Shown here: in pieces, positions 7,828 to 25,679 of the stretch
How the letters are laid out: each line of letters starts with the position of its first letter
Numbering within the stretch: the stretch's first letter is position 1
Assembly: GCA_024232835.1 (NCBI GenBank)
Contig: JAAEPI010000290.1
Coordinates: 1 to 59,424 of the forward strand
Direction of reading: 5' to 3'
DNA: 59,424 nucleotides
DNA from: Cytophagales bacterium
GTDB taxonomy: Bacteria; Bacteroidota; Bacteroidia; Cytophagales; Cyclobacteriaceae
Notes under the pieces: generated by a model
Seen by the model: only the letters and a program-made list of their open reading frames with translations
Told to the model about the DNA's origin: nothing
Database searches by the model: none
Position numbers and translations under genes: made by a program

Positions 7828-7860
7828 ATTTTGAATAAAGAACTCTTAACAACTAAAAAT

Positions 7861-9825
7861 ATGAAAAATATGAAAATCATGACTACTCTTGGCTTTTCAG
7901 CACTTTTGCTGTTCGCCATTTCGTGTGGTCAATCAAACTCAAATGACAATGGTGGGGCGCTTGGAGGGAATCTAGCCGATCGTTCTTATGTTGCTCCTGG
8001 TGAGCACGATGAATTTTATGGCTTTATATCTGGTGGATTCAGTGGTCAGTTGGCCGTTTATGGTCTGCCTTCAGGTCGATTGTTCAAAGTCATCCCTGTT
8101 TATTCTGTAGACGCAGAAAAAGCGTATGGCTTTAATGAGGAGACTAAGCCTATGCTAAATACGTCTTTTGGTGAAATTCCTTGGGATGATTCACATCACC
8201 CGGACTTGTCACAGACTAATGGTGAAATCGATGGAAGGTGGTGTTTCATTAATGCCAACAATACACCACGAATTGCACGTATAAGCTTATCTACTTTCGA
8301 GACAGAAGAGATCATCGAATTACCTAATAGTGCTGGTAACCACAGTTCATCCTTTGTCACTGAAAACACGGAATACATTGTTGCAGGAACACGTTTTTCT
8401 GTACCAATTCCGCAACGAGATATGCCGATTGATGAGTACAAAGGCAATTTCAAGGGAGCCATTTCTTTCATTAAGGTAGATCAGGAGTCTGGTCGATTTG
8501 ATCTTAGTTTTCAGCTTAAGATGCCAGGTTTTGATTATGACCTAGCACACCCTGGAAGAGGTCCTTCTCATGGTTGGATGTTTTTCTCAACATATAATAC
8601 TGAGGAGTCGAATACTTTGATGGAAGTGAATGCTTCTCAAAATGACAAAGACTACATCGCAGCGATCAATTGGAAAAAAGCTGAAGAATTAATTGCTAAT
8701 GGTGATTTTGAAACTGTACCCTCTGAATATGCACATAATGTGTGGGATGAGTCTACTCAAATGGCTACTTCTACAATTAAGAAGGAAGTTAAGATGATTG
8801 ATGCATCGAAATATCCAGGTCTTGTTTATTTCCTCCCAACACCAAAATCACCTCACGGATGTGACGTGGATCCTACCGGTGAATACATTATCGGAAGTGG
8901 TAAACTATCTGCGTCTATGACAGCTCATTCATTTACGAAGATGATTGATGCTATTGAGAATGAAAAATTTGATGGAGATGCGTATGGTATCCCAATTCTT
9001 AATTATGATGATGTCGTAGCTGGAGTTGTGAAGCAGGCAGGTCTTGGTCCATTGCATACTGAATTTGACGGTAGAGGAAATGGATATACTACTTTCTTTA
9101 TTTCTTCAGAAGTAGTGAAATGGAAAGTCGGTACTTGGGAAGTTCTTGATAGAGCGCCTACTTATTATTCCGTTGGTCACTTGATGATTCCAGGAGGTAA
9201 CTCTCAAAAGCCATATGGTAAGTATTTGGTAGCCTTGAACAAGATCACCAAAGACAGATATCTGCCAACTGGACCTGAGCTAGCTCAGTCTGCCCAATTG
9301 TATGACATTTCGGGAGATAAGATGGAGTTATTGCTGGATTTTCCAACCGTAGGTGAGCCTCACTATGCTGCAGGTGCTCCAGCAGATTTGATTAAGCCAA
9401 ACCAAATGAAGCTGTATCAACTTGAGGAGAATAATCATCCCTACGCGGTGAAGAGTGAGAAAGACACCAAAGTGACCAGAAATGGCAATGAGGTTCATAT
9501 ATACATGACAACAATCAGAAGCCACTTTGCACCAGATAATATTGAAGGTATTCAAGTGGGCGATGAAGTATTCTGGCATGTGACCAATTTGGAGCAAGAC
9601 TATGATGTGCCTCACGGAATAAGTATGATTGGTGCCCAGACATCTGAGCTTTTAATCATGCCGGGTCAAACAGAGACGTTCAAATGGTTTCCAAAAAGAG
9701 TTGGTGTGTGGCCTTTCTACTGTACAGATTTTTGTTCTGCACTTCATCAGGAAATGCAAGGATATATAAGAGTTTCTCCAAAGGGATCTAGTGTTCCACT
9801 CAAGTGGTCGTTAGACGGAGAATAG
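7861..9825 (+). CDS. nosZ: Nitrous oxide reductase NosZ, Sec-type (clade II-like)
   Basis: CuA motif WPFYCTDFCSALHQEMQGYIRV; HGCDVDPTGEYI; Sec/lipoprotein-type N-terminus LLLFAISCGQ with no twin Arg. Start taken at ATG 7861; the track starts at TTG 7831. Confidence 0.95.
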   Translation: MKNMKIMTTLGFSALLLFAISCGQSNSNDNGGALGGNLADRSYVAPGEHDEFYGFISGGFSGQLAVYGLPSGRLFKVIPVYSVDAEKAYGFNEETKPMLNTSFGEIPWDDSHHPDLSQTNGEIDGRWCFINANNTPRIARISLSTFETEEIIELPNSAGNHSSSFVTENTEYIVAGTRFSVPIPQRDMPIDEYKGNFKGAISFIKVDQESGRFDLSFQLKMPGFDYDLAHPGRGPSHGWMFFSTYNTEESNTLMEVNASQNDKDYIAAINWKKAEELIANGDFETVPSEYAHNVWDESTQMATSTIKKEVKMIDASKYPGLVYFLPTPKSPHGCDVDPTGEYIIGSGKLSASMTAHSFTKMIDAIENEKFDGDAYGIPILNYDDVVAGVVKQAGLGPLHTEFDGRGNGYTTFFISSEVVKWKVGTWEVLDRAPTYYSVGHLMIPGGNSQKPYGKYLVALNKITKDRYLPTGPELAQSAQLYDISGDKMELLLDFPTVGEPHYAAGAPADLIKPNQMKLYQLEENNHPYAVKSEKDTKVTRNGNEVHIYMTTIRSHFAPDNIEGIQVGDEVFWHVTNLEQDYDVPHGISMIGAQTSELLIMPGQTETFKWFPKRVGVWPFYCTDFCSALHQEMQGYIRVSPKGSSVPLKWSLDGE

Positions 9826-9837
9826 TTTAGGTTGGTG

Positions 9838-9870
9838 AGCAGTCCCGAGTCTCGGGGCTGCTTTTTTTTA
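9838..9870 (+). terminator. Rho-independent terminator after nosZ
   Basis: AGCAGTCCCGA-GTC-TCGGGGCTGCT followed by T-run. Confidence 0.8.
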
Positions 9871-9885
9871 TTATAAATTTGTAAA

Positions 9886-10479
9886 ATGAGAAAGTCACAA
9901 CTCCTCATGTTTGTGGGGTCATTACTCTTGCTGTCTTTGTTTGTGTTCCCACTATGGAATATAACATTAGAGGCACCTCAATACCCAGAAGCCATTGGCA
10001 TGGATATTTATATCAACAAATTTGTTGATAAAAATCCCAATGATATTAAGAACATCAATATTATGAATCATTATGTTGGGATGGAGGATATTCCAGAGCA
10101 AATTCCAGAGTTTGAGATTTTTCCTTCAGTGGTAATTGGGATGGCCGCTATTGGAGCCATCTTCGGATTTATTGGGAAAAAGAAGTTATTCGTGGCTTGG
10201 TTTACAGTAATGATCATCCTTGGATCCATAGGAATGTATGATTTTTACATGTGGGAATATGAATATGGCCACAACCTAAAAGAAACTGCTGCAATTAAAT
10301 TTACCGATGAAGATGGCGAACCCATGTCATATCAACCACCGCTGATAGGCAGCAAAATGATATTAAACTTTAAAGCCATCTCAATGCCAAGATTAGGGGC
10401 ATATTTAATGTTTGTAGGGATGTCTATGACATTAGCCGCCTTTGTAATTGAAAAAAAAGAAGATTCAAAGGAGACATAA
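9886..10479 (+). CDS. Membrane protein of nos cluster (NosB-like position)
   Basis: About 4 hydrophobic segments; lies between nosZ and nosL. Confidence 0.5.
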   Translation: MRKSQLLMFVGSLLLLSLFVFPLWNITLEAPQYPEAIGMDIYINKFVDKNPNDIKNINIMNHYVGMEDIPEQIPEFEIFPSVVIGMAAIGAIFGFIGKKKLFVAWFTVMIILGSIGMYDFYMWEYEYGHNLKETAAIKFTDEDGEPMSYQPPLIGSKMILNFKAISMPRLGAYLMFVGMSMTLAAFVIEKKEDSKET

Positions 10480-10487
10480 TAAAGAGC

Positions 10488-10928
10488 ATGTTCGAGAAGG
10501 TCTTCCAATTCGCATGTGTCTTGATTCTGGCTATCGGCTGTGAAGTTAAGCCAGCTGAAATACGTTATGGGACAGATGCTTGTCATTTTTGTAAGATGAC
10601 AATCGTAGACAAGCAGCATTCAGCTGAAGTAGTGACTATTAAGGGCAAAGCTTTTAAATATGATGCTGTTGAATGCATGATGAATGATCTGGTGCAGTGG
10701 TCAGAAGCAGAGCCACAACTTTATTTGGTGGCCGATTATTCTAATCCGGGAATATTAGTAGATGCGTCTGTTTCGCAATATTTAATTTCTGATAAAATCC
10801 CTAGTCCAATGGGAGCCTTTTTGACCGCTTTCGAAGCTAAGGAATTGCGTGATTCCTCGTTGTGGGAATTGGGAGGAGAATCAAAGGATTGGACGCAGTT
10901 ACGAAAAGATTATAATCTAAAGAATTAA
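10488..10928 (+). CDS. nosL: NosL-type copper lipoprotein
   Basis: GTDACHFCKMTIVDKQHSAEVVT...YDAVECMMNDL...SPMGAFLTAF. Confidence 0.85.
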   Translation: MFEKVFQFACVLILAIGCEVKPAEIRYGTDACHFCKMTIVDKQHSAEVVTIKGKAFKYDAVECMMNDLVQWSEAEPQLYLVADYSNPGILVDASVSQYLISDKIPSPMGAFLTAFEAKELRDSSLWELGGESKDWTQLRKDYNLKN

Positions 10929-10939
10929 TTCTAAACATT

Positions 10940-12304
10940 ATGAGGAAGTTAAATATCATATGGTTGATATGCGGGATTATTATATCCGCATTTGGCCAAA
11001 ACAAACCAAGTGCGATAGAATGTTCTTTCTGTAAAATGGATATCAATGACAACCGATTTGCGGCAGAAGCTCGCGATAAGGACAATGTGTACAATTTCGA
11101 TGCGTTGGAATGTTTGATCAATTTCATAAAGACGAGGAAAGAGTCAGATTTTGAGCGAGTATTAGTTGCCAACTATTCGAACGAGGGGCAGTTGATAGAT
11201 GCTAAAACGGCCACCTACCTTAAAAGCAATGGTATTGTCAGCCCGATGGGAGCTAATTTGTCTGCGTATGAGACAAGGCAGAAAGCGGAAGATATGAAGA
11301 AGCAAGTCGGGGGGGAACTATTTAATTGGAAGGAAATAAAGGCTAGGTTTGCAACCTCAAAATTTGGCCAAAATCATCAAGGACATCACAATCATCAAGA
11401 GCCGAATGCTTATGCTCCGGTAGGGGTAATGGGTGATCACCAACACTATAAAGGTGGAGTCATGTTCAGCGTGCGATACATGGAAATGAACATGGAAGGA
11501 AATCTTTCTGGCTCAACTTCTATTCAGGATATGGAAATTTTTCAGAACTACATGGTAGCACCCCTATCCATGACTATGCGGATGTACATGATTGGGGCTA
11601 TGTATGCCCCTACTGATAAACTGACACTCATGGTCATGCAAAATTTTGTAGCGAAGAGCATGAATCTTTCTACGATGATGGGCGCGAATTTTTCTACTCA
11701 AGCAAAAGGAGCTGGGGACTTGAGCTTGACAGCACTTTTTAGCATAATACGTGATACTCGCTCCACAGTCCATCTCAACGGTGGTATTAGCTTGCCATTA
11801 GCGAAAATCAATTATAGTGATGATACACCTATGATGGAAACCATGAAGCTTCCTTACACCATGCAGCTCGGCAGTGGGACAACAGATTATAGTTTTGGTG
11901 CCACCTTCAAAACGGAGGTTAGTAATCTAACCCTGGGTGTCCAACAATCGAACACTTTTAGAAGCGGAGAGAACAATCATGGATATAAACTAGGAAATTT
12001 GCATGAGCTGAATGTATGGGCTGGGTACGAAGTGGCCTCATGGATAAATATAAATGCAAGAATGAAAGGGGTTTCGAATGGCCAAATTGATGGAGCTGAT
12101 GAGGATCTAAATCCTATGATGGTGACCACAGCAAATACCGACAACACAGGATTCAAAAAAGGGTATGCCTTTCTAGGGTCGAATCTGATTTTTAAGGGCT
12201 TTATATTAGGACTAGAATATGGTTTACCAATCTATCAGGATGTTCGGGGAATACAAATGGATGAAGGCAGTACATTTGCCGCCGGATTGCGTTTCTCCTA
12301 CTAG
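10940..12304 (+). CDS. NosL-like domain fused to Met-rich outer-membrane beta-barrel-like domain
   Basis: N-term IECSFCKMDINDNRFAAEARDKD...YNFDALECLINF...SPMGANLSAY (NosL); linker NHQGHHNHQEPNAYAPVGVMGDHQHYKGG; C-term YRYMEMNMEG..MTMRMYMIGAMYAPTDKLTLMVMQNF...LRFSY barrel-like end. Confidence 0.8.
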   Translation: MRKLNIIWLICGIIISAFGQNKPSAIECSFCKMDINDNRFAAEARDKDNVYNFDALECLINFIKTRKESDFERVLVANYSNEGQLIDAKTATYLKSNGIVSPMGANLSAYETRQKAEDMKKQVGGELFNWKEIKARFATSKFGQNHQGHHNHQEPNAYAPVGVMGDHQHYKGGVMFSVRYMEMNMEGNLSGSTSIQDMEIFQNYMVAPLSMTMRMYMIGAMYAPTDKLTLMVMQNFVAKSMNLSTMMGANFSTQAKGAGDLSLTALFSIIRDTRSTVHLNGGISLPLAKINYSDDTPMMETMKLPYTMQLGSGTTDYSFGATFKTEVSNLTLGVQQSNTFRSGENNHGYKLGNLHELNVWAGYEVASWININARMKGVSNGQIDGADEDLNPMMVTTANTDNTGFKKGYAFLGSNLIFKGFILGLEYGLPIYQDVRGIQMDEGSTFAAGLRFSY

Positions 12305-12310
12305 AGCAAG

Positions 12311-13543
12311 ATGATCAAAAGGGTTTTTCTGATTTACATAATTTCTTTTCTGACATATGGTGCTTCAGCTTTTACTACCGAAGTGTGCCATACTTGTGAA
12401 GTCAACAACCTAGCAGACGCGATTCGATTGAGTCATAGAGGGGATACCGTTTTGGTAAAACCAGGAATTTATGAATGTAGTGATCAGGAACTAAGAAAGC
12501 CCATTACCCTGATAGGGGAGAAAGGGGCTATTCTTGACGGGCAGATGACCGGATACATTCTCAAAATACTTTCTGATAGTGTGACAATCCGAGGGTTCAA
12601 ATTCATTAATTCAGGGAAGAGCTATACAAAGGACTATGCTGCTATCTACAGCTACAGAGTCAGGCACTTCAATATAATTGGAAATGAAATCGAAAATCCT
12701 TTCTTTGGGGCACTTTTGGAAAAATCCCATGATGGCGTAATCAAGGACAATTTAATATTTGGAGAATCGAAACAAGAGGATGACTCAGGCAATGGCATTC
12801 ATGCGTGGCACTGTTCTAATTTATTAATTAGCAACAATACCCTTCATGGTTTAAGAGATGGAATATATCTTGAATTTGTCACCGAAAGCGAGATTTCTAA
12901 CAACCTCTCTCATGATAACATTCGCTATGGCCTGCATTTTATGTTTTCAAATAATGACAAGTATTTGAGTAATACTTTCCAAGACAATGGTGCCGGAGTG
13001 GCGGTTATGTTTTCAAAGTTCATCGTGATGAAGGAGAATAAATTCATTGAAAACTGGGGTACAGCGTCATATGGCTTACTATTGAAGGAAATCAATGATG
13101 CAGAAGTTGAGAACAACACTTTTAGGGAAAATACAATAGGTGTTTTTGTAGAGGGCTCGAATCGGGTGAATTATGTAGACAACAGATTTGAGAGTAACGG
13201 ATGGGCAGTGAAGGTGTCTGGTGGCTGCTATGAAAACTATTTCATGAGAAATAATTTCATAAGCAATTCATTCGACCTTGCCTATAATGGCAAACTGAAT
13301 GATAACAAATTTGAAGGAAATTTTTGGAGCACATATAGCGGATATGATTTGGATAAGAACGGAATTGGGGATGTACCCTATCGGCCAGTAAAGCTTTTTT
13401 CTTACGTAGTGAACAAAACACCTGAGGCAATTATATTGCTACGAAGCTTGTTTGTAGATATTATCAATTTTTCTGAGCAAGTGTCACCAGTTTTTACTCC
13501 AGACAATCTTGTTGATCCTCAACCATCCATGAAACCATTCTGA
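12311..13543 (+). CDS. nosD: NosD, periplasmic copper-binding right-handed beta-helix protein
   Basis: Parallel beta-helix repeats (NNTLHGLRDGIYLEFVTESEISNNLSHDNIRYGLHFMFSNND), position in nosDFY. Confidence 0.9.
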   Translation: MIKRVFLIYIISFLTYGASAFTTEVCHTCEVNNLADAIRLSHRGDTVLVKPGIYECSDQELRKPITLIGEKGAILDGQMTGYILKILSDSVTIRGFKFINSGKSYTKDYAAIYSYRVRHFNIIGNEIENPFFGALLEKSHDGVIKDNLIFGESKQEDDSGNGIHAWHCSNLLISNNTLHGLRDGIYLEFVTESEISNNLSHDNIRYGLHFMFSNNDKYLSNTFQDNGAGVAVMFSKFIVMKENKFIENWGTASYGLLLKEINDAEVENNTFRENTIGVFVEGSNRVNYVDNRFESNGWAVKVSGGCYENYFMRNNFISNSFDLAYNGKLNDNKFEGNFWSTYSGYDLDKNGIGDVPYRPVKLFSYVVNKTPEAIILLRSLFVDIINFSEQVSPVFTPDNLVDPQPSMKPF

Positions 13544-14244
13544 TGCTGTCAATAAAAAATCTACATAAGAAATTTGGTAAGCTGAAGGTGCTGGATGGAG
13601 TGAGTTTTGATATTCCGACAAGTGGAACTATCGCCGTGCTTGGGCCAAATGGTTCAGGGAAGACGACAATAATGAAATGTATTTTGGGCATGGTTATTCC
13701 CAACAGTGGAGACATAACGTTAAATGATATGCCTGTGCTGAAACAATGGGACTATCGACGCGAAATTGGGTATCTGCCTCAAATCGCACAGTTTCCGGAC
13801 AATCTTACCGTCCAAGAACTGATCAATATGATCAAGGACTTGCGTAGTGCTCCAGCCAACGAATCAGAGTTGATTGATCGCTTCGAGTTGCATCCTTTCC
13901 TGTCTCAGAAACTTTCGAATCTTTCAGGAGGCACTAAGCAGAAGGTGAACATTGTTTTGACTTTTATGTTTGATTGCCCACTTTATATTCTGGATGAGCC
14001 AACAGCCGGGCTGGATCCGATATCCATGATCCGATTGAAAGAGCTAATTGATAGGAAAAAGAACGAAGAAAAGACCATCATTGTCACCACCCATATTATG
14101 AGTTTGGTAGAAGAGTTGGCGGATGAAATCTTCTTTTTGCTAGATGGGAAAATTTATTTTCGCGGCACGGTAGATCAGTTGAAAAAGGAAACCATACAGG
14201 AAGATTTGGAGCATGCCATCGCAAATATTTTAACGAATGATTAA
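13543..14244 (+). CDS. nosF: NosF, ABC transporter ATP-binding protein
   Basis: Walker A GPNGSGKTT, signature LSGGTKQKV, Walker B LYILDEPTAGLDP. Confidence 0.9.
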   Translation: MLSIKNLHKKFGKLKVLDGVSFDIPTSGTIAVLGPNGSGKTTIMKCILGMVIPNSGDITLNDMPVLKQWDYRREIGYLPQIAQFPDNLTVQELINMIKDLRSAPANESELIDRFELHPFLSQKLSNLSGGTKQKVNIVLTFMFDCPLYILDEPTAGLDPISMIRLKELIDRKKNEEKTIIVTTHIMSLVEELADEIFFLLDGKIYFRGTVDQLKKETIQEDLEHAIANILTND

Positions 14245-15019
14245 AATACTTAAATACAGTTTTTTCGATTTGATTAGAAGTAGATGGAGCTACGTGTATC
14301 TTCTATTTTATTTGATCATTGGGTTTGCGCTTCTTTTTCTCAATAACAATTTGTCAAAGGCCATCATTACGTTAATGAATATCGTAGTGGTATTGGTCCC
14401 TATGATTGGAACCATCTTCGGAGTGATGTATTATTACAGTTCGCAAGAGTTCACAGAGCTACTTCTTGCACAGCCGATTAAAAGGAGAACAATCTTTTTA
14501 GGACAGTATTTGGGTATCGCCTTGTCTTTGTCTTTTAGTTTGTTAGTAGGGCTTGGGATTCCGTTTCTGGCGTATGGTTTGATGCAGTCAGGGGAGATTT
14601 GGAATTTCGGTTTGCTGCTGATTGTTGGCACTTTCCTTACCTTCATTTTTGTTGCACTGGCATTCGCTATTTCTCTTCGAAACGAAAATAAGATCAAGGG
14701 TTTTGGTTATGGCATTTTGCTCTGGTTATTTATGGCTGTAATTTATGACGGACTATTCTTAATACTCCTTGTGACCTTTGACGATTATCCATTGGACAAG
14801 TTCACTTTGGCAGCTAGCTTTCTAAATCCTATTGATCTGTCTAGAATTCTAATACTTCTTAAGCTTGATATTTCTGCGTTACTTGGCTACACAGGGGCAT
14901 TGTTTCAACAATATTTTGGAACTGGAACGGGCATGATCATGTCGCTGAGTTCTCTTGCCATTTGGACAGTTGTACCTATGTGGATGATAGTGAGAAGTTC
15001 GGGGAAGAAGGATTTTTAA
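14237..15019 (+). CDS. nosY: NosY, ABC transporter permease
   Basis: Six-TM-like permease overlapping nosF end; FTELLLAQPIKRRTIFLGQYLG. Confidence 0.9.
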   Translation: MIKILKYSFFDLIRSRWSYVYLLFYLIIGFALLFLNNNLSKAIITLMNIVVVLVPMIGTIFGVMYYYSSQEFTELLLAQPIKRRTIFLGQYLGIALSLSFSLLVGLGIPFLAYGLMQSGEIWNFGLLLIVGTFLTFIFVALAFAISLRNENKIKGFGYGILLWLFMAVIYDGLFLILLVTFDDYPLDKFTLAASFLNPIDLSRILILLKLDISALLGYTGALFQQYFGTGTGMIMSLSSLAIWTVVPMWMIVRSSGKKDF

Positions 15020-16670: not shown

Positions 16671-17105
16671 ATGTTCCAAACGATTCTTATTCCTACAGAT
16701 TTTACTCCTGCGGCTTGGAAGGCTATGTATGTTGGTGTGGCCTTAGGGGAATCTCATAAATCCCATTTGACACTACTTCACGTTTATCCCAATTCAGACA
16801 AATTTTCGAAAGAAAAATTAACAAAGGATATATCCGACGAACTAAAGAAGATAAAGGACAATATGGAAAAAATGAGCAAAGAGATAGCCCAGGAAAAGGG
16901 ACTGAAAATTTCTTCAGTAGTTTTATCAGGGAATGTCGAAGAGCAGTTAATTTCTTTTGTCAAAGAGCACCCAACTGATTTAGTCATTATGGGTGTGAAT
17001 AGTAACGGGGATGATAACAACCCAGGCAGTCACACTGTGGAGATCATTCAGCAAAGTTCCGCACCTTTGCTGATCGTTCCAAACAGCTATTCAATTGACG
17101 AATGA
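16671..17105 (+). CDS. Universal stress protein
   Basis: MFQTILIPTDFTPAAWKA...DLVIMGVNS...VEIIQQSSAPLLIVP. Start taken at ATG 16671. Confidence 0.85.
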   Translation: MFQTILIPTDFTPAAWKAMYVGVALGESHKSHLTLLHVYPNSDKFSKEKLTKDISDELKKIKDNMEKMSKEIAQEKGLKISSVVLSGNVEEQLISFVKEHPTDLVIMGVNSNGDDNNPGSHTVEIIQQSSAPLLIVPNSYSIDE

Positions 17106-19476
17106 AACCAAAATAGATCAGAAGGTATTGTGTCGTCATTGCGGAGATCCTTGCGATGACGAGTCTATTCATATTGCCGATCATATTTTTTGTTGTTATG
17201 GTTGTCGGGCCGTTTCTGAATTGTTAGACGGGACGAATCTAAGCACCTATTATCAGGAAACTTCCGAACAGAACAAATCTATCTCCGACCTGAAGTCAGA
17301 AAGGAAGTTTGGATTTCTTGCTGACGAAAAGGTTCAGGAGCAGGTTCTTAAATATCATGACGATGAACTTTCAGTGGTTAAGTTTGATCTACCTGGTATT
17401 CATTGCAGTTCGTGCATTTTTTTGTTGGAGCATCTCCCCAAACTTGAGGGTGCCATTATTCGTTCAGAAGTCAATTTCATCCGTAAGGAGATCACGATAA
17501 CTTTTCATCATAAGGAGAAGTCTTTGAAAGACATAGCCATACTTCTAGCCCAGCTTGGCTATCCTCCAGAGATCAACCTGAATTCTTCTGATCAAACAAA
17601 AAGAAGATTATCCAAAAATCAAATTGGGACCAAAATAGCTGTTGCAGGATTTTGCTTTGGCAATGCGATGCTCATGAGCATGCCAGAGTATTTGGATACC
17701 AATTTTTTACTGACTGCTCGATTCAAAGAATTATTTGGATGGATCAGTTTGGGCATGGCCCTCCCAATCGTTTTTTATTCAGGGCGGGACTATTTTGTCA
17801 GTGCTTGGAAGAGCTTAATGTTTGGGAATATTCACATTGATGTACCAGTGGCTTTGGGTATTGCTACTCTTTTCGGAAGGAGTGTTTTTGAGATTCTTAC
17901 CCAGACGGGTGGCGGCTATGTGGATTCATTGGCAGGGCTTGTTTTCTTTCTCCTTATCGGAAAATGGTATCAAAGCAAAACGTACCAGGCTTTGTCCTTC
18001 GAAAGAGATTATAAATCCTATTTCCCTGTTTCGGTCATTTGTCTCAATGAAGGAAAGGAAGGAAATGTTTTGTTGAAGGATTTAAAAGCCGGAGATGTCG
18101 TGATCATACACAATGATGAGCTCATTCCTGCTGATGGTGAAATTGTGGATGGAAATGCTATCATCGACTACAGCTTTGTGACAGGTGAATCAGCACCAGT
18201 TGAAAAGAGCCTAGGTGATCGGGTGTTTGGTGGCGGAAGGCAAAAAGGCAGTCAGCTCACGGTGAGATTAGATCAATCGGTCAACAATAGCGAACTGACG
18301 CAGCTTTGGAATCAAGAGGAAAAGGAAGGTGATGGAAAGAATTTCAAGAGTCTGATTGACCAAATAAGTAAATACTTCACGGCTGCTGTGATATTGATAG
18401 CCATCGGTACAGGAATTTATTGGCAGGTTACCGATCCCTCGATAATTTGGAATTCTGTTACTGCGGTTTTGATTGTGGCATGTCCTTGTGCCCTGGCATT
18501 GACGTTACCCTTTGCTCATGGCCATGCCATGCGTATTTTAGGAGAGAATGGGCTCTATTTGAAAAATGCAGGCGTGATAGAGACTCTATCAAAAGTCAAA
18601 TCTATAATTTTTGATAAAACAGGCACCTTGACATCCAATGAATCCGAGCAGGTGACCTTTGTTGGAGAGGCACTAAATGAAGGTGAGCAGGTTCAGATCG
18701 CGTCAATACTGACAAACTCAGCACACCCGTTGAGCAGATTGGCATTGGAGGCAATTCAAGCTACTGAAAAGAAGCCTGTGAGTGAATATGAAGAAGTGCT
18801 GGGGAAGGGGATGAGGGGCAATATTGATGGCGTTGAGATTAAAGCAGGTTCGGCAGAATGGATTGGAGTGGAAACTGTGGAGGTAATGAATGAATCACGC
18901 GTTTATATTCAGATTGACGCTCAATTTCGTGGATACTTCGCCTGTCAATCGGCATATCGAAAAGGGGCAATGGATATGCTAAATAATGTAAGGAGTCAGT
19001 TTTCTATGCATTTGCTGTCTGGTGATAATGATTCTGAAAGGAAACACCTGGAGCCGTATTTCAAGCACTTATCATTCAACCAGAAACCTATGGACAAAAG
19101 AGCTTATCTGGAAAACATTTACGAACCATCACTGATGATCGGTGATGGCCTCAATGATGCTGGAGCATTACAAGTGGCTGACGTAGGTATAGCCGTTTCT
19201 GAAGATATTCATCGGTTTTCACCTGCATGCGATAGCATTATAAGTTCGAAGAGCTTATCAAAAATTCCGAGTATTATGAATTTTTCTAAAGGCGTGAGAA
19301 CGATCATTATTCTAGCTATGATCATTTCGTTGCTCTACAATGTGGTTGGGCTTTCGTTTGCAATGGCGGGTCAGTTAACGCCGTTGGTCTCAGCTATACT
19401 CATGCCAATCAGTTCCATTTCAGTTGTGGGGTTTGTAACGTTGATGGTTGCTTGGAGGGGGCGATTGCTAAGATAA
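17095..19476 (+). CDS. ccoI: Heavy-metal P-type ATPase for cbb3 oxidase assembly (CcoI/FixI)
   Basis: N-term CRHCGDPC..CCYGCRAVSELL, GIHCSSC metal site, CPCALAL, DKTGTLT, GDGLNDAGAL. Confidence 0.9.
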   Translation: MTNETKIDQKVLCRHCGDPCDDESIHIADHIFCCYGCRAVSELLDGTNLSTYYQETSEQNKSISDLKSERKFGFLADEKVQEQVLKYHDDELSVVKFDLPGIHCSSCIFLLEHLPKLEGAIIRSEVNFIRKEITITFHHKEKSLKDIAILLAQLGYPPEINLNSSDQTKRRLSKNQIGTKIAVAGFCFGNAMLMSMPEYLDTNFLLTARFKELFGWISLGMALPIVFYSGRDYFVSAWKSLMFGNIHIDVPVALGIATLFGRSVFEILTQTGGGYVDSLAGLVFFLLIGKWYQSKTYQALSFERDYKSYFPVSVICLNEGKEGNVLLKDLKAGDVVIIHNDELIPADGEIVDGNAIIDYSFVTGESAPVEKSLGDRVFGGGRQKGSQLTVRLDQSVNNSELTQLWNQEEKEGDGKNFKSLIDQISKYFTAAVILIAIGTGIYWQVTDPSIIWNSVTAVLIVACPCALALTLPFAHGHAMRILGENGLYLKNAGVIETLSKVKSIIFDKTGTLTSNESEQVTFVGEALNEGEQVQIASILTNSAHPLSRLALEAIQATEKKPVSEYEEVLGKGMRGNIDGVEIKAGSAEWIGVETVEVMNESRVYIQIDAQFRGYFACQSAYRKGAMDMLNNVRSQFSMHLLSGDNDSERKHLEPYFKHLSFNQKPMDKRAYLENIYEPSLMIGDGLNDAGALQVADVGIAVSEDIHRFSPACDSIISSKSLSKIPSIMNFSKGVRTIIILAMIISLLYNVVGLSFAMAGQLTPLVSAILMPISSISVVGFVTLMVAWRGRLLR

Positions 19477-19605
19477 TTTAGGCAATATTTTTTTGGCATC
19501 ATCATTCTTCAATAAATCAGATAATAAAATGATAAAAATTATCCATATTTCTGTTAATTCTTTGGGTCGTTTTAGCACTACAAGCTAATTTTGCGCCAAA
19601 TTATT

Positions 19606-19803
19606 ATGAGTGTAATAATTCTACTTATTGGATGCAGCCTTGCAGTTGCGTTGCTTTTTTTAGGAGCCTATTTGTGGGCAGCTAGATCAGGACAGTACGA
19701 TGATGATTATACTCCTTCAATTCGCATGTTATTTGATGACGAGCTAAACCAAGATTCATGTCAGACACCACCCAAAACCAGTCGGAAGGAAAGACCAGCG
19801 TAG
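19606..19803 (+). CDS. ccoS: cbb3 oxidase assembly protein CcoS
   Basis: Small protein MSVIILLIGCSLAVALLFLGAYLWAARSGQYDDDYTPSIRMLFDDE. Confidence 0.85.
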   Translation: MSVIILLIGCSLAVALLFLGAYLWAARSGQYDDDYTPSIRMLFDDELNQDSCQTPPKTSRKERPA

Positions 19804-21917
19804 ATACCTTTTATTACGACAATCAGATTGTCCGGATGTTCCTTATTGCCTGTGTTATTTTCGGCATTGTTGGAATGACGGTCGGATTGTTGGTCGCTTT
19901 TCAGCTTGTTCTACCTGAAGCAAACTTCGGATTGCAATACACCACTTTTGGTAGAGTGCGTCCGCTTCATACGAATGCGGTCATTTTTGCCTTTGTGGGA
20001 AATGGAATTTTCGCAGGAGTGTACTACTCTATGCAACGATTGCTCAAAACTAGAATGTTCAGTGACCTATTAGGTCGAATTCATTTCTGGGGATGGCAAT
20101 TAATCATTCTGGCAGCAGCTATCTCGCTTCCTTTAGGACTGACAACCGGTAAAGAATACGCAGAACTCGAATGGCCGATTGATATTGCGATAGCCCTGAT
20201 ATGGGTTGTATTTGGTATCAACATGCTTGGTACATTGATTAAGCGACGCGAACGTCATATTTATGTTGCCATTTGGTTTTATCTAGCCACTTTCGTTACA
20301 GTTGCGTTGCTTCACATTGTTAACTCTATTGAGTTACCGATTAGCTTGATGAAAAGCTACTCTTGGTATGCTGGCGTGCAGGACGCACTTGTACAATGGT
20401 GGTACGGACACAATGCAGTGGCATTCTTCCTTACGACTCCCTATCTCGGCTTGATGTACTATTTCGTACCCAAGGCCGCTAACCGACCTGTTTATTCTTA
20501 TCGACTTTCAATTGTCCATTTTTGGGCATTGATATTTATTTATATCTGGGCAGGCCCTCATCACTTGCTATATACTTCTTTACCAGATTGGGCTCAGTCA
20601 CTCGGAGTTGTTTTCTCTATTATGCTGATTGCTCCATCTTGGGGAGGAATGTTAAATGGCCTCCTTACACTTCGTGGAGCTTGGGATCGAGTTCGAGAAG
20701 ACCCAGTGCTTAAGTTCATGGTTGTAGCCACTACATGTTACGGTATGTCAACTTTTGAAGGTCCAATGATGTCCTTGAAAAGTGTGAATGCTATTGCCCA
20801 TTTTACTGATTGGATTGTTGCACACGTGCACGTTGGAGCACTTGGTTGGAATGGTTTCATAACATTTGGAATGTTATATTACTTAATTCCGAAGATGTAT
20901 GGAACCAAGATATTCTCACTCAAATTGGCTAATACGCATTTCTGGTTAGGAACACTCGGAATCATATTCTATGCACTCCCATTGTACTGGGCAGGGTTCA
21001 CTCAGAGTTTGATGTGGAAGCAATTTAATCCTGAGGGGACATTGGTTTATTTCAATTTTTTGGAAACGGTGACTCAAATACTACCCATGTACTGGATGAG
21101 AGCATTTGGAGGCACTATCTATCTCATTGGTGCCATTGTTATGGTGTATAACCTGATAAAAACTGCAAAAGCTGGAACCTTCTTAAAAAATAGTCAAGCT
21201 GAGGCAGCTCCTTTGGAGAAAGGGTTTACAACTCCCAAAGGCGAGCATTGGCATAGACGAATTTTTGAAGCTAAGCCACTTAGACTTACACTTTTTGCTC
21301 TGGTTGCTGTGGCCATTGGCGGTATTGTTGAGTTTGTGCCTGTATTCCTTGTCAAGGAGAATATACCAACAATATCAAGCGTACAACCATATACCCCACT
21401 TGAATTACATGGGCGAGATATTTATGTTAGAGAGGGTTGTCACAACTGTCATTCACAAATGATTAGACCTTTTAGGTCCGAAACTGAGAGATATGGTGAA
21501 TATTCCAAGGCTGGAGAATTTGTTTATGATCATCCATTCCAATGGGGTTCTAAGCGAACAGGTCCTGATTTGCATCGTATAGGTGCAAAGTATCCAGATA
21601 GTTGGCACTTCTACCATATGCTGGATCCAACTAGTATGTCGCCGGGATCAATTATGCCACCATATCCATGGATTTATGATCAGGACTGGGACAAAGAAAG
21701 CACTGAAGTAAAAATACGAGCCATGCAAACGTTGGGCGTTCCTTATCCAGAAGGATACGACCAGCAGGCTTTAGCTGACGCTGAAAAGCAAGCTCAGGAA
21801 ATTTCGGACAGATTGAAGCAACAAGATCAAATTGATATGGCCAAGGATGCAGAGATCATTGCTCTAATTGCTTATTTGCAACGAATGGGAACTGATATTA
21901 ATTCAAATCGAGACTGA
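19758..21917 (+). CDS. ccoNO: Fused cbb3-type cytochrome c oxidase subunits I and II (CcoN-CcoO)
   Basis: CcoN core (VRPLHTNAVIFAF, HNAVAFFLT, VHVGALGWNGF) then CcoO-type LHGRDIYVREGCHNCHSQMIRPFRSETERYGEYSKAGE. Confidence 0.95.
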   Translation: MSDTTQNQSEGKTSVDTFYYDNQIVRMFLIACVIFGIVGMTVGLLVAFQLVLPEANFGLQYTTFGRVRPLHTNAVIFAFVGNGIFAGVYYSMQRLLKTRMFSDLLGRIHFWGWQLIILAAAISLPLGLTTGKEYAELEWPIDIAIALIWVVFGINMLGTLIKRRERHIYVAIWFYLATFVTVALLHIVNSIELPISLMKSYSWYAGVQDALVQWWYGHNAVAFFLTTPYLGLMYYFVPKAANRPVYSYRLSIVHFWALIFIYIWAGPHHLLYTSLPDWAQSLGVVFSIMLIAPSWGGMLNGLLTLRGAWDRVREDPVLKFMVVATTCYGMSTFEGPMMSLKSVNAIAHFTDWIVAHVHVGALGWNGFITFGMLYYLIPKMYGTKIFSLKLANTHFWLGTLGIIFYALPLYWAGFTQSLMWKQFNPEGTLVYFNFLETVTQILPMYWMRAFGGTIYLIGAIVMVYNLIKTAKAGTFLKNSQAEAAPLEKGFTTPKGEHWHRRIFEAKPLRLTLFALVAVAIGGIVEFVPVFLVKENIPTISSVQPYTPLELHGRDIYVREGCHNCHSQMIRPFRSETERYGEYSKAGEFVYDHPFQWGSKRTGPDLHRIGAKYPDSWHFYHMLDPTSMSPGSIMPPYPWIYDQDWDKESTEVKIRAMQTLGVPYPEGYDQQALADAEKQAQEISDRLKQQDQIDMAKDAEIIALIAYLQRMGTDINSNRD

Positions 21918-21918
21918 T

Positions 21919-22107
21919 ATGAAGCTAATTAAACATCACTTGGAAACGATCACGGGTATTGAAATATACCCGCTCATCTCATTCGTCATATTCTTTCTTT
22001 TCTTCACAGGGCTTTTTATTTATGTCTATCGAATGGACAAGTCTAAAATTAAAGAAATCACCAATATTCCACTAGATTCTAAAGAAACAGAAGATGAAAA
22101 TAATTAA
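21919..22107 (+). CDS. ccoQ: CcoQ-like small subunit
   Basis: Single-TM protein MKLIKHHLETITGIEIYPLISFVIFFLFFTGLFIYVYRMDKSKI between ccoNO and ccoP. Confidence 0.75.
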   Translation: MKLIKHHLETITGIEIYPLISFVIFFLFFTGLFIYVYRMDKSKIKEITNIPLDSKETEDENN

Positions 22108-23023
22108 ACAACTATTCATTTTTATTGGGATACTAATGCTTCCTGCATTGTCTCAGGCTCAAGATGCTAGTCAAAGTTATAAAGTCGAAATGGTTATTAC
22201 CCTGATCATCATTATTTGTGCAGTTGCTTTGCTGATACTTTTTGTTGCACGGAGGGGTAAGCGATCAGTAATGAATGCAAATGATGGAGCTGAGCAAGAT
22301 ACGGGATTCCTTTCAGCACGATCAGGTGAAGAGCACATGGGATTCTGGGGTCGATTGTGGAGCCACATGAACTATTCGGGATCCATTCAAGATGAGGTAT
22401 CTGTTGCGACTGAGCATGAATACGATGGTATCCGTGAGCTTGATAATAAACTTCCACCTTGGTGGCTTTATGGGTTTTATTTTACTATTATTTTCGGGAT
22501 AATTTATTGGATCCGATTTGAGGTATCAGAATCAGGACCTAGTCAGGAAGAAGAATATAAGGCAGAAATGGCCAAAGCTGACGCAGACGTTCAAACATAC
22601 TTAGCATCATTAGGAAATTTGGTAGATGAAACTAATGTAGAATTGGCAACCGATCAGGCTGATTTGGATGCCGGACAAGCTATCTATGAAAAAAATTGTG
22701 CAGTATGCCATGTAGTAGATGGTGGTGGTAGTGTTGGACCGAATTTTACAGATAAGTTTTGGTTAAACGGAGGAGACATTAAATCGATTTTTTCAACTAT
22801 AAAATATGGAGTTCCTGCAAAAGGGATGATTCCTTGGGAGAGTCAACTTTCAGCCGAGCAAATCAAACAAGTTTCTAGCTACATATACAACTTGGAGGGC
22901 ACCACGCCAGCTAACCCCAAGGAGCCCCAAGGCGAATTGTTCGAGAGGTCTGGGAGTGCTGCAGAAGGAGATGCTTCCGAGGAGAGTACAACAGAAGAGA
23001 GAGCCAAGGAGGAAGCTTCCTGA
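22094..23023 (+). CDS. ccoP: cbb3 oxidase subunit III CcoP (one CxxCH)
   Basis: DNKLPPWWLYGFYFTIIFGIIYWIRF N-term domain; heme motif CAVCHV. Confidence 0.9.
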   Translation: MKIIKQLFIFIGILMLPALSQAQDASQSYKVEMVITLIIIICAVALLILFVARRGKRSVMNANDGAEQDTGFLSARSGEEHMGFWGRLWSHMNYSGSIQDEVSVATEHEYDGIRELDNKLPPWWLYGFYFTIIFGIIYWIRFEVSESGPSQEEEYKAEMAKADADVQTYLASLGNLVDETNVELATDQADLDAGQAIYEKNCAVCHVVDGGGSVGPNFTDKFWLNGGDIKSIFSTIKYGVPAKGMIPWESQLSAEQIKQVSSYIYNLEGTTPANPKEPQGELFERSGSAAEGDASEESTTEERAKEEAS

Positions 23024-23032
23024 TTTTAAAGT

Positions 23033-24469
23033 ATGGTAGAGGAGCTAAAGGATGTATATGAGGAGCAGAATGACGCGGAGAACACCTTTAGAGACAGCTT
23101 AGCTACAGTAGATGAAGAGGGTAAGCGAATATGGCTATATCCAAAGAAGCCTAAGGGGAGGTTTACCAATTGGCGAAATGTTGTCAATTCCATTTTATTA
23201 ATCATTTTAATAGGTAGTCCGTTTGTCACGGTTGGTGGGCAGCCTCTAATGCTGTTTGATATCTTTGAAAGAAAGTTCATCCTATTCGGTCAAATATTCT
23301 GGCCTCAGGATTTCCATCTTTTTGTTATTGCAATGACCGTTCTGGTACTATTTATTGTCCTGTTCACGGTCGTCTATGGGCGTATATTTTGTGGTTGGAT
23401 ATGTCCACAAACGATTTTTATGGAAGGTGTATTCAGAAAAATCGAATACTGGATCGAAGGGGATTACGTGGCTCAAAAGAAACTAGATAAACAACCCTGG
23501 AATTCTGGAAAGATCCTAAAGAAATCAGGTAAACAATTTCTCTTTATAGTTGTGAGTACGGTCATTATGCATACGTTCATGGCCTACCTGATTGGGGTTG
23601 AAAGTACTTGGGAAATAATAGTCTCCGGCCCGGCAACAAATCCCGGTGGATTCGTAGGGGTAGTGGTTGTAACTGGCCTATTCTACGGTGTTTTCAGCAT
23701 AATGCGTGAGCAGGTTTGCACAACCATTTGTCCATACGGACGCTTGCAGGGTGTGCTACTAGATCGTAATTCTGTGATTGTGGGGTATGATCATATACGA
23801 GGGGAGTCACGTAGCAAATTTCGAAAAGATGAGGATAGAAAAGTAGCTGGTAAAGGTGACTGCATTGACTGTAAACAGTGCGTGTACGTGTGCCCTACTG
23901 GAATTGATATTCGGAATGGCACCCAACTTGAATGCGTGAATTGCACGGCTTGTATAGACGCCTGTGATTCTATCATGGATAGAATTGATAAACCGAGAGG
24001 TTTGGTTCGCTATGCGTCTGAGGCCAATATTGCTGACAACAAGTCTTTTGAATTTACGGCACGTATAAAAGCATATTCGGTTCTTCTCGTTTTATTGATT
24101 GTGGCCTTGGTGAGCCTATTAATTATCAGATCTGATTTTGAAACAACCATTCTTCGACAGCCGGGAATGACTTTCCAAAAGCGTGATGATGGAAGAGTCA
24201 GCAACTTGTATCAGATGAAGATGGTAAATAAAACATCTTTGACAATGAATGTACGTTTTGAGCTATTGAGGCCAGCAGGAGAACTACAAATGGTGAAAAG
24301 TGATGATATCTTGCTTGAAGAGCAAGGAATTGCCGAGGGAGCATTTTTTGTGATTATAGATCCGAAAGATCTGGATGGAATGAGTAGTAAAATCGAAATA
24401 GGGGTCTTTTCAGGAGAAGAACAAATTGAGACGGTCAAGACTAAATTCCTTGGCCCCATGAGTCGATGA
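23033..24469 (+). CDS. ccoG: Cytochrome oxidase accessory protein CcoG (4Fe-4S)
   Basis: YGRIFCGWICPQTIFMEGVFRKIEYWIEGD, CIDCKQCVYVCPTGIDIRNGTQLECVNCTACIDACD. Confidence 0.95.
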   Translation: MVEELKDVYEEQNDAENTFRDSLATVDEEGKRIWLYPKKPKGRFTNWRNVVNSILLIILIGSPFVTVGGQPLMLFDIFERKFILFGQIFWPQDFHLFVIAMTVLVLFIVLFTVVYGRIFCGWICPQTIFMEGVFRKIEYWIEGDYVAQKKLDKQPWNSGKILKKSGKQFLFIVVSTVIMHTFMAYLIGVESTWEIIVSGPATNPGGFVGVVVVTGLFYGVFSIMREQVCTTICPYGRLQGVLLDRNSVIVGYDHIRGESRSKFRKDEDRKVAGKGDCIDCKQCVYVCPTGIDIRNGTQLECVNCTACIDACDSIMDRIDKPRGLVRYASEANIADNKSFEFTARIKAYSVLLVLLIVALVSLLIIRSDFETTILRQPGMTFQKRDDGRVSNLYQMKMVNKTSLTMNVRFELLRPAGELQMVKSDDILLEEQGIAEGAFFVIIDPKDLDGMSSKIEIGVFSGEEQIETVKTKFLGPMSR

Positions 24470-24573
24470 ATTTGAATATGTGTTCATTAATTGGAGATCG
24501 AAATATGCAGGTGTCATCCTGAGGTTCTAGAAGGGTGTACTCAAAAACAGCTAAAAACTTGTAACTTAAAGAG

Positions 24574-25008
24574 ATGAATTGGGGAGTTAAAATAACTATT
24601 GCCTTTGTCCTATTTGCCGGATTCATTCTGTACATGGTCGCACGCTCTTTTCAGCACGAAATTAATCTTGTGTCTGATTCGTATTATTCAGAGGAGATCA
24701 ATTTTCAAGATCGTATTGATCAAAAAGCAAACCTAAAAGCGATTGGGGAAGAAGTGAAGGTTTCAATAATAAGCAAGGATATTGTACTATTGGAATTTCC
24801 AGAAGATCATGAGTCAGCGAATGGTGAGATCCATTTTTATCATGTATCTCATCAATTATTTGACAAGAAATTTCCAATACAACTTGATTCAATTGGTCAA
24901 CAGCGCATGAACACTGAAAAGTTGGCGGCTGGTCGCTATCGTGTCAAGTTGAGCTGGGAGGTAGGAAAAGAAGGGTACTTTCAAGAATCAGAAATTTTCA
25001 TCAAATGA
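24574..25008 (+). CDS. fixH: FixH family protein
   Basis: MNWGVKITIAFVLFAGFILYMV...DSYYSEEINFQDRID; follows ccoG. Confidence 0.85.
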   Translation: MNWGVKITIAFVLFAGFILYMVARSFQHEINLVSDSYYSEEINFQDRIDQKANLKAIGEEVKVSIISKDIVLLEFPEDHESANGEIHFYHVSHQLFDKKFPIQLDSIGQQRMNTEKLAAGRYRVKLSWEVGKEGYFQESEIFIK

Positions 25009-25679
25009 TTTCAGCTTTTATTATAGGTCTAGCAGGGAGTCTCCATTGTGTGGGGATGTGCGGTCCGCTCATGATAAGCTTGAAGTCCAATCAATCCAGG
25101 CAATCTTTCGTCATCTATCATGTAGGTAGGTTGATGGTGTATTCAATACTTGGACTTGCATTCGGGATCATCGGACAGGGGTTGGTTCTGTTAGAAGCAC
25201 AACGAGTACTTGCAATTACAAGTGGCCTGGTATTAATACTATTGTATGCTGTTCCTACTAGTCGAAAATGGGTTGAAAAAAAGTACTACGAATCCCATTT
25301 TTTTATTGGAGTTCGTAAGCGAATGAACGCTTATTTCACAACGGGCGGGAAGTGGTTTGTTGCTGGCGCACTAAACGGATTAATACCATGTGGTCTTATA
25401 TATTTAGCTGTTGCAGGTTCTTTGATTGTGGCGGATCCAATGCAGGGAGCGATATTTATGCTTCTTTTTGGACTCGGGACACTTCCAGCACTAGCGCTTG
25501 TTGGTTTCTTTGAGACGCTTGTACTCACAGGCCTTAAAAACAGATTCTCAGGTGTATTCTCTGGAATAGCCATTATTGCTGGTTGTATATTAGTTTTCAG
25601 AGGGTTGTCAGATTATCCATCAATAAATGAGTTTATGATAATGAGTGTGAATCGGATGATTACCATTTGTGGAATGTGA
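25005..25679 (+). CDS. Sulfite exporter TauE/SafE-like membrane protein of cbb3 cluster
   Basis: MISAFIIGLAGSLHCVGMCGPLMISL...LNGLIPCGLIYLAVAGS. Confidence 0.85.
   Translation: MISAFIIGLAGSLHCVGMCGPLMISLKSNQSRQSFVIYHVGRLMVYSILGLAFGIIGQGLVLLEAQRVLAITSGLVLILLYAVPTSRKWVEKKYYESHFFIGVRKRMNAYFTTGGKWFVAGALNGLIPCGLIYLAVAGSLIVADPMQGAIFMLLFGLGTLPALALVGFFETLVLTGLKNRFSGVFSGIAIIAGCILVFRGLSDYPSINEFMIMSVNRMITICGM

What the first reader, a model, noticed from the sequence alone, without database searches (positions are those of the whole stretch)
10940..12304. NosL copper-binding domain fused to a His/Met-rich outer-membrane-barrel-like domain inside the nos operon
Seen: one continuous 454-aa ORF starts with a complete NosL-type domain (CSFCKMDI...SPMGANLSAY), passes through a His-rich linker (NHQGHHNHQEPNAYAPVGVMGDHQHY) and ends in a Met-rich, beta-barrel-like region ending in LRFSY. 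Known: NosL is a copper lipoprotein needed for NosZ metal-site assembly. Inference: the fusion may couple copper passage across the outer membrane to NosZ maturation. A separate stand-alone NosL sits immediately upstream, suggesting divided roles.
Basis: partly seen in the sequence, partly recalled or inferred. Interest (0 to 1): 0.75.

Follow-up and report, generated by a model that had tools for sequence, protein, structure and literature searches.

The report
Copper chaperone fused to membrane barrel
Some Bacteroidota make their nitrous-oxide-reducing enzyme with the help of a single protein that joins the known copper chaperone NosL to an outer-membrane barrel rich in copper-loving methionines, which suggests (but does not prove) that copper is handed directly from the cell surface to the enzyme that destroys this greenhouse gas.

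Summary
The finding is real. ORF 10940-12304 (454 aa) is one uninterrupted gene inside a clade II nos operon. Residues ~22-140 are a NosL domain (PF05573) with the clade II copper motif. Residues ~155-454 are predicted with high confidence (pLDDT 91.6) as a 12-stranded outer-membrane barrel; best solved match is the COG4313 channel 4rl8. It is no assembly artefact: the same fusion sits in the same slot (nosZ-nosB-nosL-FUSION-nosD-nosF-nosY) in 23 further genomes or loci, including single-contig genomes. Both domains form one clade and dN/dS is low. It is a minority variant: 3 of 97 nosZ-bearing genomes of the order, 1 of 80 of other orders. The barrel belongs to a large, unnamed Met-rich family, otherwise stand-alone, with an invariant M-x-D-H-x-H motif and about 12 conserved methionines that strand parity places in the lumen. 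The upstream NosL keeps a lipobox; the fusion has a signal peptidase I site instead, so the barrel replaces the lipid anchor. Most likely role: copper intake at the outer membrane handed to NosL for CuZ assembly, analogous to NosA/OprC. Fold (predicted), position and conservation are shown; copper transport is inferred. I found no published description.

The parts
10940..12304 (+). NosL-barrel fusion gene, 454 aa
   Evidence: single ORF; full-length homologues in 23 other genomes or loci
10940..10996 (+). signal peptide (residues 1-19), signal peptidase I type, likely cleavage AFG|Q, no lipobox
   Evidence: read from sequence; same pattern in all 19 named fusions, against lipoboxes in their upstream NosL
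11003..11359 (+). NosL domain (residues ~22-140)
   Evidence: PF05573 E 2.4e-11; phmmer to NosL chains of 7osf and 7znq, E 2e-5
11021..11038 (+). CSFCKM, clade II NosL copper motif CXXCXM (C28, C31, M33)
   Evidence: C28, C31, M33 invariant in 20 of 20 fusions; motif as described in PMC6530538
11240..11254 (+). SPMGA with the second conserved NosL methionine (M103)
   Evidence: invariant in 20 of 20 fusions
11360..11401 (+). short His-rich linker (residues ~141-154), partly disordered in the model
   Evidence: pLDDT below 50 at 145-148; H152 invariant in fusions
11402..12301 (+). 12-stranded outer-membrane barrel (residues ~155-454), ending in LRFSY
   Evidence: AlphaFold2, Foldseek 4rl8/FapF, PF13557 in relatives
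11429..11446 (+). MGDHQH (M164, D166, H167, H169), near-invariant motif just before strand 1
   Evidence: 0.95-1.0 conserved in 79 homologues
11459..11674 (+). strands 1-3 with the conserved methionine array (M175, 181, 183, 185, 211, 213, 215, 217, 221, 231, 233, 241)
   Evidence: 12 of 13 conserved strand Mets on the parity assigned to the lumen
10488..10928 (+). stand-alone NosL (NosL1), lipoprotein
   Evidence: PF05573 E 8.8e-8; lipobox LAIGC in sequence; lies apart from the fusion NosL clade
9886..10479 (+). NosB-like membrane protein (named by position and by comparison with PMC9697520)
   Evidence: no Pfam hit; fused to NosL in G035, G016 and G027, as reported for NosB-NosL of Dyadobacter
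7831..9825 (+). NosZ, clade II Sec-dependent nitrous-oxide reductase
   Evidence: TIGR04246, 931 bits, cut-off 625
12311..13543 (+). NosD
   Evidence: TIGR04247, 426 bits, cut-off 300
13543..15019 (+). NosF and NosY (ABC transporter)
   Evidence: adjacent ORFs; same order in all fusion clusters

Best explanation
The gene encodes a single outer-membrane protein. Its C-terminal part is a 12-stranded beta-barrel whose strands 1-3 carry a column of conserved methionines, probably on the lumen side, with a near-invariant M-x-D-H-x-H segment just before strand 1. Its N-terminal part is a complete NosL copper(I) chaperone domain that would hang in the periplasm on a short His-rich linker. Proposed working: copper is captured in the Met/His-lined barrel, passes over the MGDHxH segment and the His linker to the CXXCXM/Met site of the tethered NosL, and NosL delivers it to NosDFY/NosZ for the CuZ site, while the second, lipid-anchored NosL keeps the ordinary NosL role. 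Shown here: one ORF, two domains, barrel fold (by prediction), conserved ligands, exclusive position in nos operons, single origin, purifying selection. Inferred: outer-membrane location, copper as the cargo, inward direction, direct hand-over.
For: Barrel model with high confidence and COG4313/FapF as closest solved folds; PF13557 in relatives and in sibling fusion L063. NosL copper ligands C28, C31, M33, M103 invariant in 20 fusions, matching the clade II motif in PMC6530538. Met is 8.2% of residues in fusion barrels against 2.4% in neighbouring ORFs; 12 of 13 conserved strand Mets lie on the lumen parity; H167, H169 and most of the Mets are at or near 1.0 in 79 homologues. Position nosL1-FUSION-nosD in all 24 clusters. 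Some stand-alone barrels lie near copper genes: MbnP (L039, L043), CusF (L097). The fusion lacks the lipobox that NosL1 keeps, as expected if the barrel takes over the outer-membrane anchoring proposed for NosL. One clade for each domain; dN/dS 0.05-0.21 in resolvable pairs. Precedent for an outer-membrane copper route to NosZ: NosA/OprC (PMC7558416).
Against: No copper binding or transport was measured. The COG4313 member of known structure is nearly plugged and was judged unlikely to carry hydrophilic solutes (PMC4493636). The lumen assignment rests on strand parity, weak for strand 2, since model coordinates could not be read. Most nosZ-bearing relatives manage without the fusion. Copper-gene neighbours of stand-alone barrels are few and were not tested against a background.
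Confidence: 0.55

Rival explanations
1. Anchor only: the barrel merely replaces the lipid as the outer-membrane anchor of an extra NosL copy and carries no copper itself.
For: NosL1 has a lipobox, the fusion a signal peptidase I site; NosL is thought to sit at the outer membrane (PMC6530538).
Against: The Met array and MGDHxH motif are as conserved in the fusion barrels as in stand-alone barrels, and dN/dS of the barrel is below that of the NosL domain in the three pairs where both resolve, which is more than an anchor needs.
Confidence: 0.2
2. Copper export or detoxification: the barrel lets excess periplasmic copper out, with NosL as the loading domain, in the manner proposed for PcoB in Caulobacter.
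For: PcoB is also a 12-stranded barrel with a His/Met-rich periplasmic N-terminus and is needed for copper resistance (PMC12509749).
Against: The fusion was found only in nos operons and is tied to a chaperone that is needed when copper is scarce (PMC6530538). E. coli PcoB itself has been reported to take copper in (PMC9210255).
Confidence: 0.12
3. Channel for a hydrophobic or other small molecule (as suggested for COG4313 proteins), with the methionines serving packing or another ligand.
For: Closest solved fold is a COG4313 channel thought to serve hydrophobic molecules, perhaps by lateral diffusion.
Against: A near-invariant Met/His set is typical of soft metal sites, and the fusion to a copper chaperone would be left unexplained.
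Confidence: 0.1
4. Assembly or frameshift artefact joining two genes.
For: The window is from a fragmented assembly (1521 contigs).
Against: Same fusion in 23 other genomes or loci, including single-contig genomes G071 and G347, with purifying selection over both halves.
Confidence: 0.01

Closest known systems
NosL (PF05573), copper chaperone of nitrous-oxide reductase
   Same: N-terminal domain, CXXCXM motif, conserved second Met, place in the nos operon
   Different: no lipobox; tethered to a transmembrane barrel; a second ordinary NosL sits upstream
NosA/OprC, TonB-dependent outer-membrane copper protein for NosZ (Pseudomonas)
   Same: outer-membrane protein linked to copper supply for NosZ; Met/His copper sites in OprC
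   Different: NosA/OprC is a large TonB-dependent receptor; this is a small 12-stranded barrel without plug or receptor domains and is fused to the chaperone
COG4313 / PF13557 (Phenol_MetA_deg) outer-membrane channels, Pput2725 (4rl8)
   Same: 12-stranded barrel fold; N-terminal segment plausibly inside the lumen
   Different: Met array and MGDHxH motif; window protein itself gives no Pfam match; no link to hydrophobic substrates seen
PcoB/CopB outer-membrane copper barrel
   Same: 12 strands, His/Met-rich periplasmic N-terminal part, copper context
   Different: no Pfam CopB match; the PcoB pore is acidic and suited to Cu(II), this one is Met-rich; the N-terminal part is a folded chaperone, not a disordered tail
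NosB-NosL fusions (Dyadobacter, some Flavobacterium)
   Same: another fusion of NosL with a membrane protein in clade II nos clusters
   Different: partner is a polytopic membrane protein; in G035 both kinds of fusion coexist

Membership tests
NosL (PF05573) | Pfam profile match above gathering score | tested here: met
   44.5 bits, cut-off 24
NosL (PF05573) | clade II CXXCXM motif and second conserved Met | tested here: met
   C28, C31, M33, M103 invariant in 20 fusions
NosL (PF05573) | lipoprotein signal (lipobox) of typical NosL | tested here: not met
   signal peptidase I type site in the fusion; lipobox only in NosL1. So it holds a NosL domain but is not a typical NosL lipoprotein
NosL (PF05573) | encoded in a nos operon with nosZ, nosD, nosF, nosY | tested here: met
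NosL (PF05573) | binds Cu(I) and supports CuZ assembly | not testable with these tools
   needs protein and mutant work
COG4313/PF13557 outer-membrane channel | 12-stranded barrel fold like 4rl8 | tested here: met
   Foldseek E 5e-14, target TM 0.75
COG4313/PF13557 outer-membrane channel | Pfam PF13557 match | tested here: inconclusive
   window protein no hit; sibling fusion L063 22.4 bits, cut-off 22; stand-alone relatives up to E 3e-9
NosA/OprC (TonB-dependent receptor) | plug and TonB-dependent barrel domains | tested here: not met
   no PF07715/PF00593 match; about 12 strands predicted
PcoB/CopB | Pfam copper-resistance B profile | tested here: not met
   no such match among hits up to E 1

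The most novel reading that the evidence does not exclude
The Met-rich barrels form an unrecognised family of outer-membrane copper(I) conduits found in many phyla, and the nos fusion is a dedicated surface-to-chaperone copper relay in which import across the outer membrane and hand-over to a named metallochaperone happen within one polypeptide.
Probability: 0.4. Interest if true: 0.85.

Novelty: new variant of a known kind. Interest (0 to 1): 0.62.

Why it matters
[quoted passage not shown] How copper crosses the outer membrane for NosZ in bacteria without NosA is open (PMC7558416 speaks only of suggested alternative pathways). A fusion of the chaperone to a Met-rich outer-membrane barrel, restricted to nos operons, names a candidate entry gate and makes the question testable by one deletion and a few point mutations.

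Tried and rejected
Assembly artefact: rejected by recurrence. TonB-dependent NosA homologue: no plug or receptor domain. CopB/PcoB membership: no profile match. A nos-specific role of the whole barrel family: rejected, since stand-alone barrels do not go with nosZ (2 of 17 genomes have both, about 4 expected by chance). Multiple independent fusions: not supported, one clade for each domain. Viral spread: no relative in viral contigs. Reading lumen positions from model coordinates was not possible (no coordinate file), so strand parity was used. Promoter-like sites were no more frequent than in shuffles.

Full report
Observation. The ORF at 10940-12304 is a single 454-aa frame. Pfam finds NosL at residues 27-135 and nothing significant in the C-terminal two thirds. 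The neighbours are a cytochrome c, a fasciclin-domain protein, clade II NosZ (TIGR04246), a NosB-like membrane protein, a stand-alone NosL, then the fusion, NosD, NosF and NosY; gaps of 8, 11 and 6 bases separate nosB, nosL, the fusion and nosD. The genome has no other NosL and no other relative of the barrel by these searches.

Not an artefact. Full-length homologues at about 42-54% identity occur in G035, G071, G347 and G632 and in 19 named loci from Cyclobacteriaceae, Roseivirga, Cryomorphaceae and Flavobacteriaceae. In all of them the fusion lies between NosL and NosD behind NosZ and NosB (in G035 NosB and NosL are themselves fused). G071 and G347 are single-contig genomes. Where divergence allows an estimate, dN/dS is 0.05-0.21 over both halves (one near-identical pair, L065/L066, has too few changes for a meaningful ratio).

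Structure. AlphaFold2 with 55 sequences gives mean pLDDT 91.6 and pTM 0.77: an alpha/beta NosL domain, a disordered stretch at 145-148, and a run of long antiparallel strands from 174 to 453. I count 12 strands by splitting the last 33-residue strand; that split is mine. Foldseek against PDB puts the COG4313 channel 4rl8 and FapF first. Relatives match PF13557, and the sibling fusion L063 passes the gathering score for NosL and PF13557 together. In the solved COG4313 channel the N-terminal segment folds into the lumen from the periplasmic side (PMC4493636), so the MGDHxH segment here plausibly does the same; this is inference.

Metal-ligand pattern. Among 79 relatives from several phyla, M175, M183, M185, M211, M215, M217, M221, M241, M308, H167 and H169 are present in all to rounding, with M164, D166, M181, M213 and M233 at 0.95-0.99. 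In strands 1-3 alternate positions carry the Mets; taking the more hydrophobic parity as lipid-facing, 12 of 13 conserved strand Mets point to the lumen. The assignment is clear for strand 1, moderate for 3 and weak for 2. The NosL half keeps C28, C31, M33 and M103 in all 20 aligned fusions, the residues discussed as ligands for clade II NosL (PMC6530538).

Anchor swap. The upstream NosL has a lipobox in all 19 loci (one with the variant NSC), while the fusion has a signal peptidase I-like AQ/GQ site and no lipobox at that point (pattern hits inside the hydrophobic core of a few fusions are not at the cleavage site). NosL is thought to be held at the outer membrane by its lipid (PMC6530538). 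The barrel therefore seems to replace the lipid anchor.

Origin and spread. In the barrel tree the 22 fusions form one clade (100/100); their NosL domains also form one clade (99/86), apart from NosL1. One extra NosL copy and one joining to a barrel explain this. The fusion is a minority: 3 of 97 nosZ-bearing genomes in the order sample and 1 of 80 nosZ-bearing genomes of other orders. Stand-alone barrels are common and do not track nosZ. Some lie by MbnP or CusF, many flavobacterial ones by a TonB receptor and a PepSY protein, some proteobacterial ones beside a sensor kinase and regulator. In G027 an unfused barrel stands divergent to, and close beside, the nos operon.

Mechanism and rivals. 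I think the likeliest role is copper intake at the outer membrane with hand-over to the tethered NosL for CuZ assembly, in place of the NosA route known in Pseudomonas (PMC7558416). Rivals are a mere anchor, copper export as proposed for PcoB, and a channel for some other molecule. None can be excluded without experiments.

Known or new. Published Bacteroidota nos clusters list nosL between nosZ and nosD (PMC7477175) or NosB-NosL fusions (PMC9697520). My searches of the open-access library found no description of a NosL-barrel fusion; subscription papers were not searchable.

Noticed in passing
9837-9863 (+): Strong terminator-like hairpin (12 pairs, 7 GC, then TTTTTT) between nosZ and the nosB-nosL-fusion genes; could attenuate maturation genes relative to nosZ.
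   Followed up: no
9886-10479: NosB-like protein without any Pfam or NCBIfam match; it is fused to NosL in G035, G016 and G027.
   Followed up: partly
L102:9980-10357, L043:8431-8868, L134:3765-4136 and about 35 loci: Small unnamed protein with an LCxNK..CxGxCYL-type motif encoded close to many stand-alone barrels, same strand; no Pfam or NCBIfam family.
   Followed up: partly
L082, L088, L101, L112, L125: Stand-alone barrel divergent from a sensor kinase/response regulator pair that looks by eye like RegB/RegA (kinase domains confirmed for L082).
   Followed up: partly
L041:8164-9597, L044:8205-9593: The barrel carries a different, unnamed ~150-aa N-terminal region in a family of small-genome relatives.
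   Followed up: no
L034:6780-8993 (Methylosinus plasmid): 738-aa protein with an OMP_b-brl barrel followed by this Met-rich barrel, next to feoB.
   Followed up: no
17095-25679: cbb3 oxidase cluster (metal P-type ATPase, fused CcoNO, CcoP-like, CcoG) downstream of the nos operon: two copper-enzyme systems side by side.
   Followed up: partly
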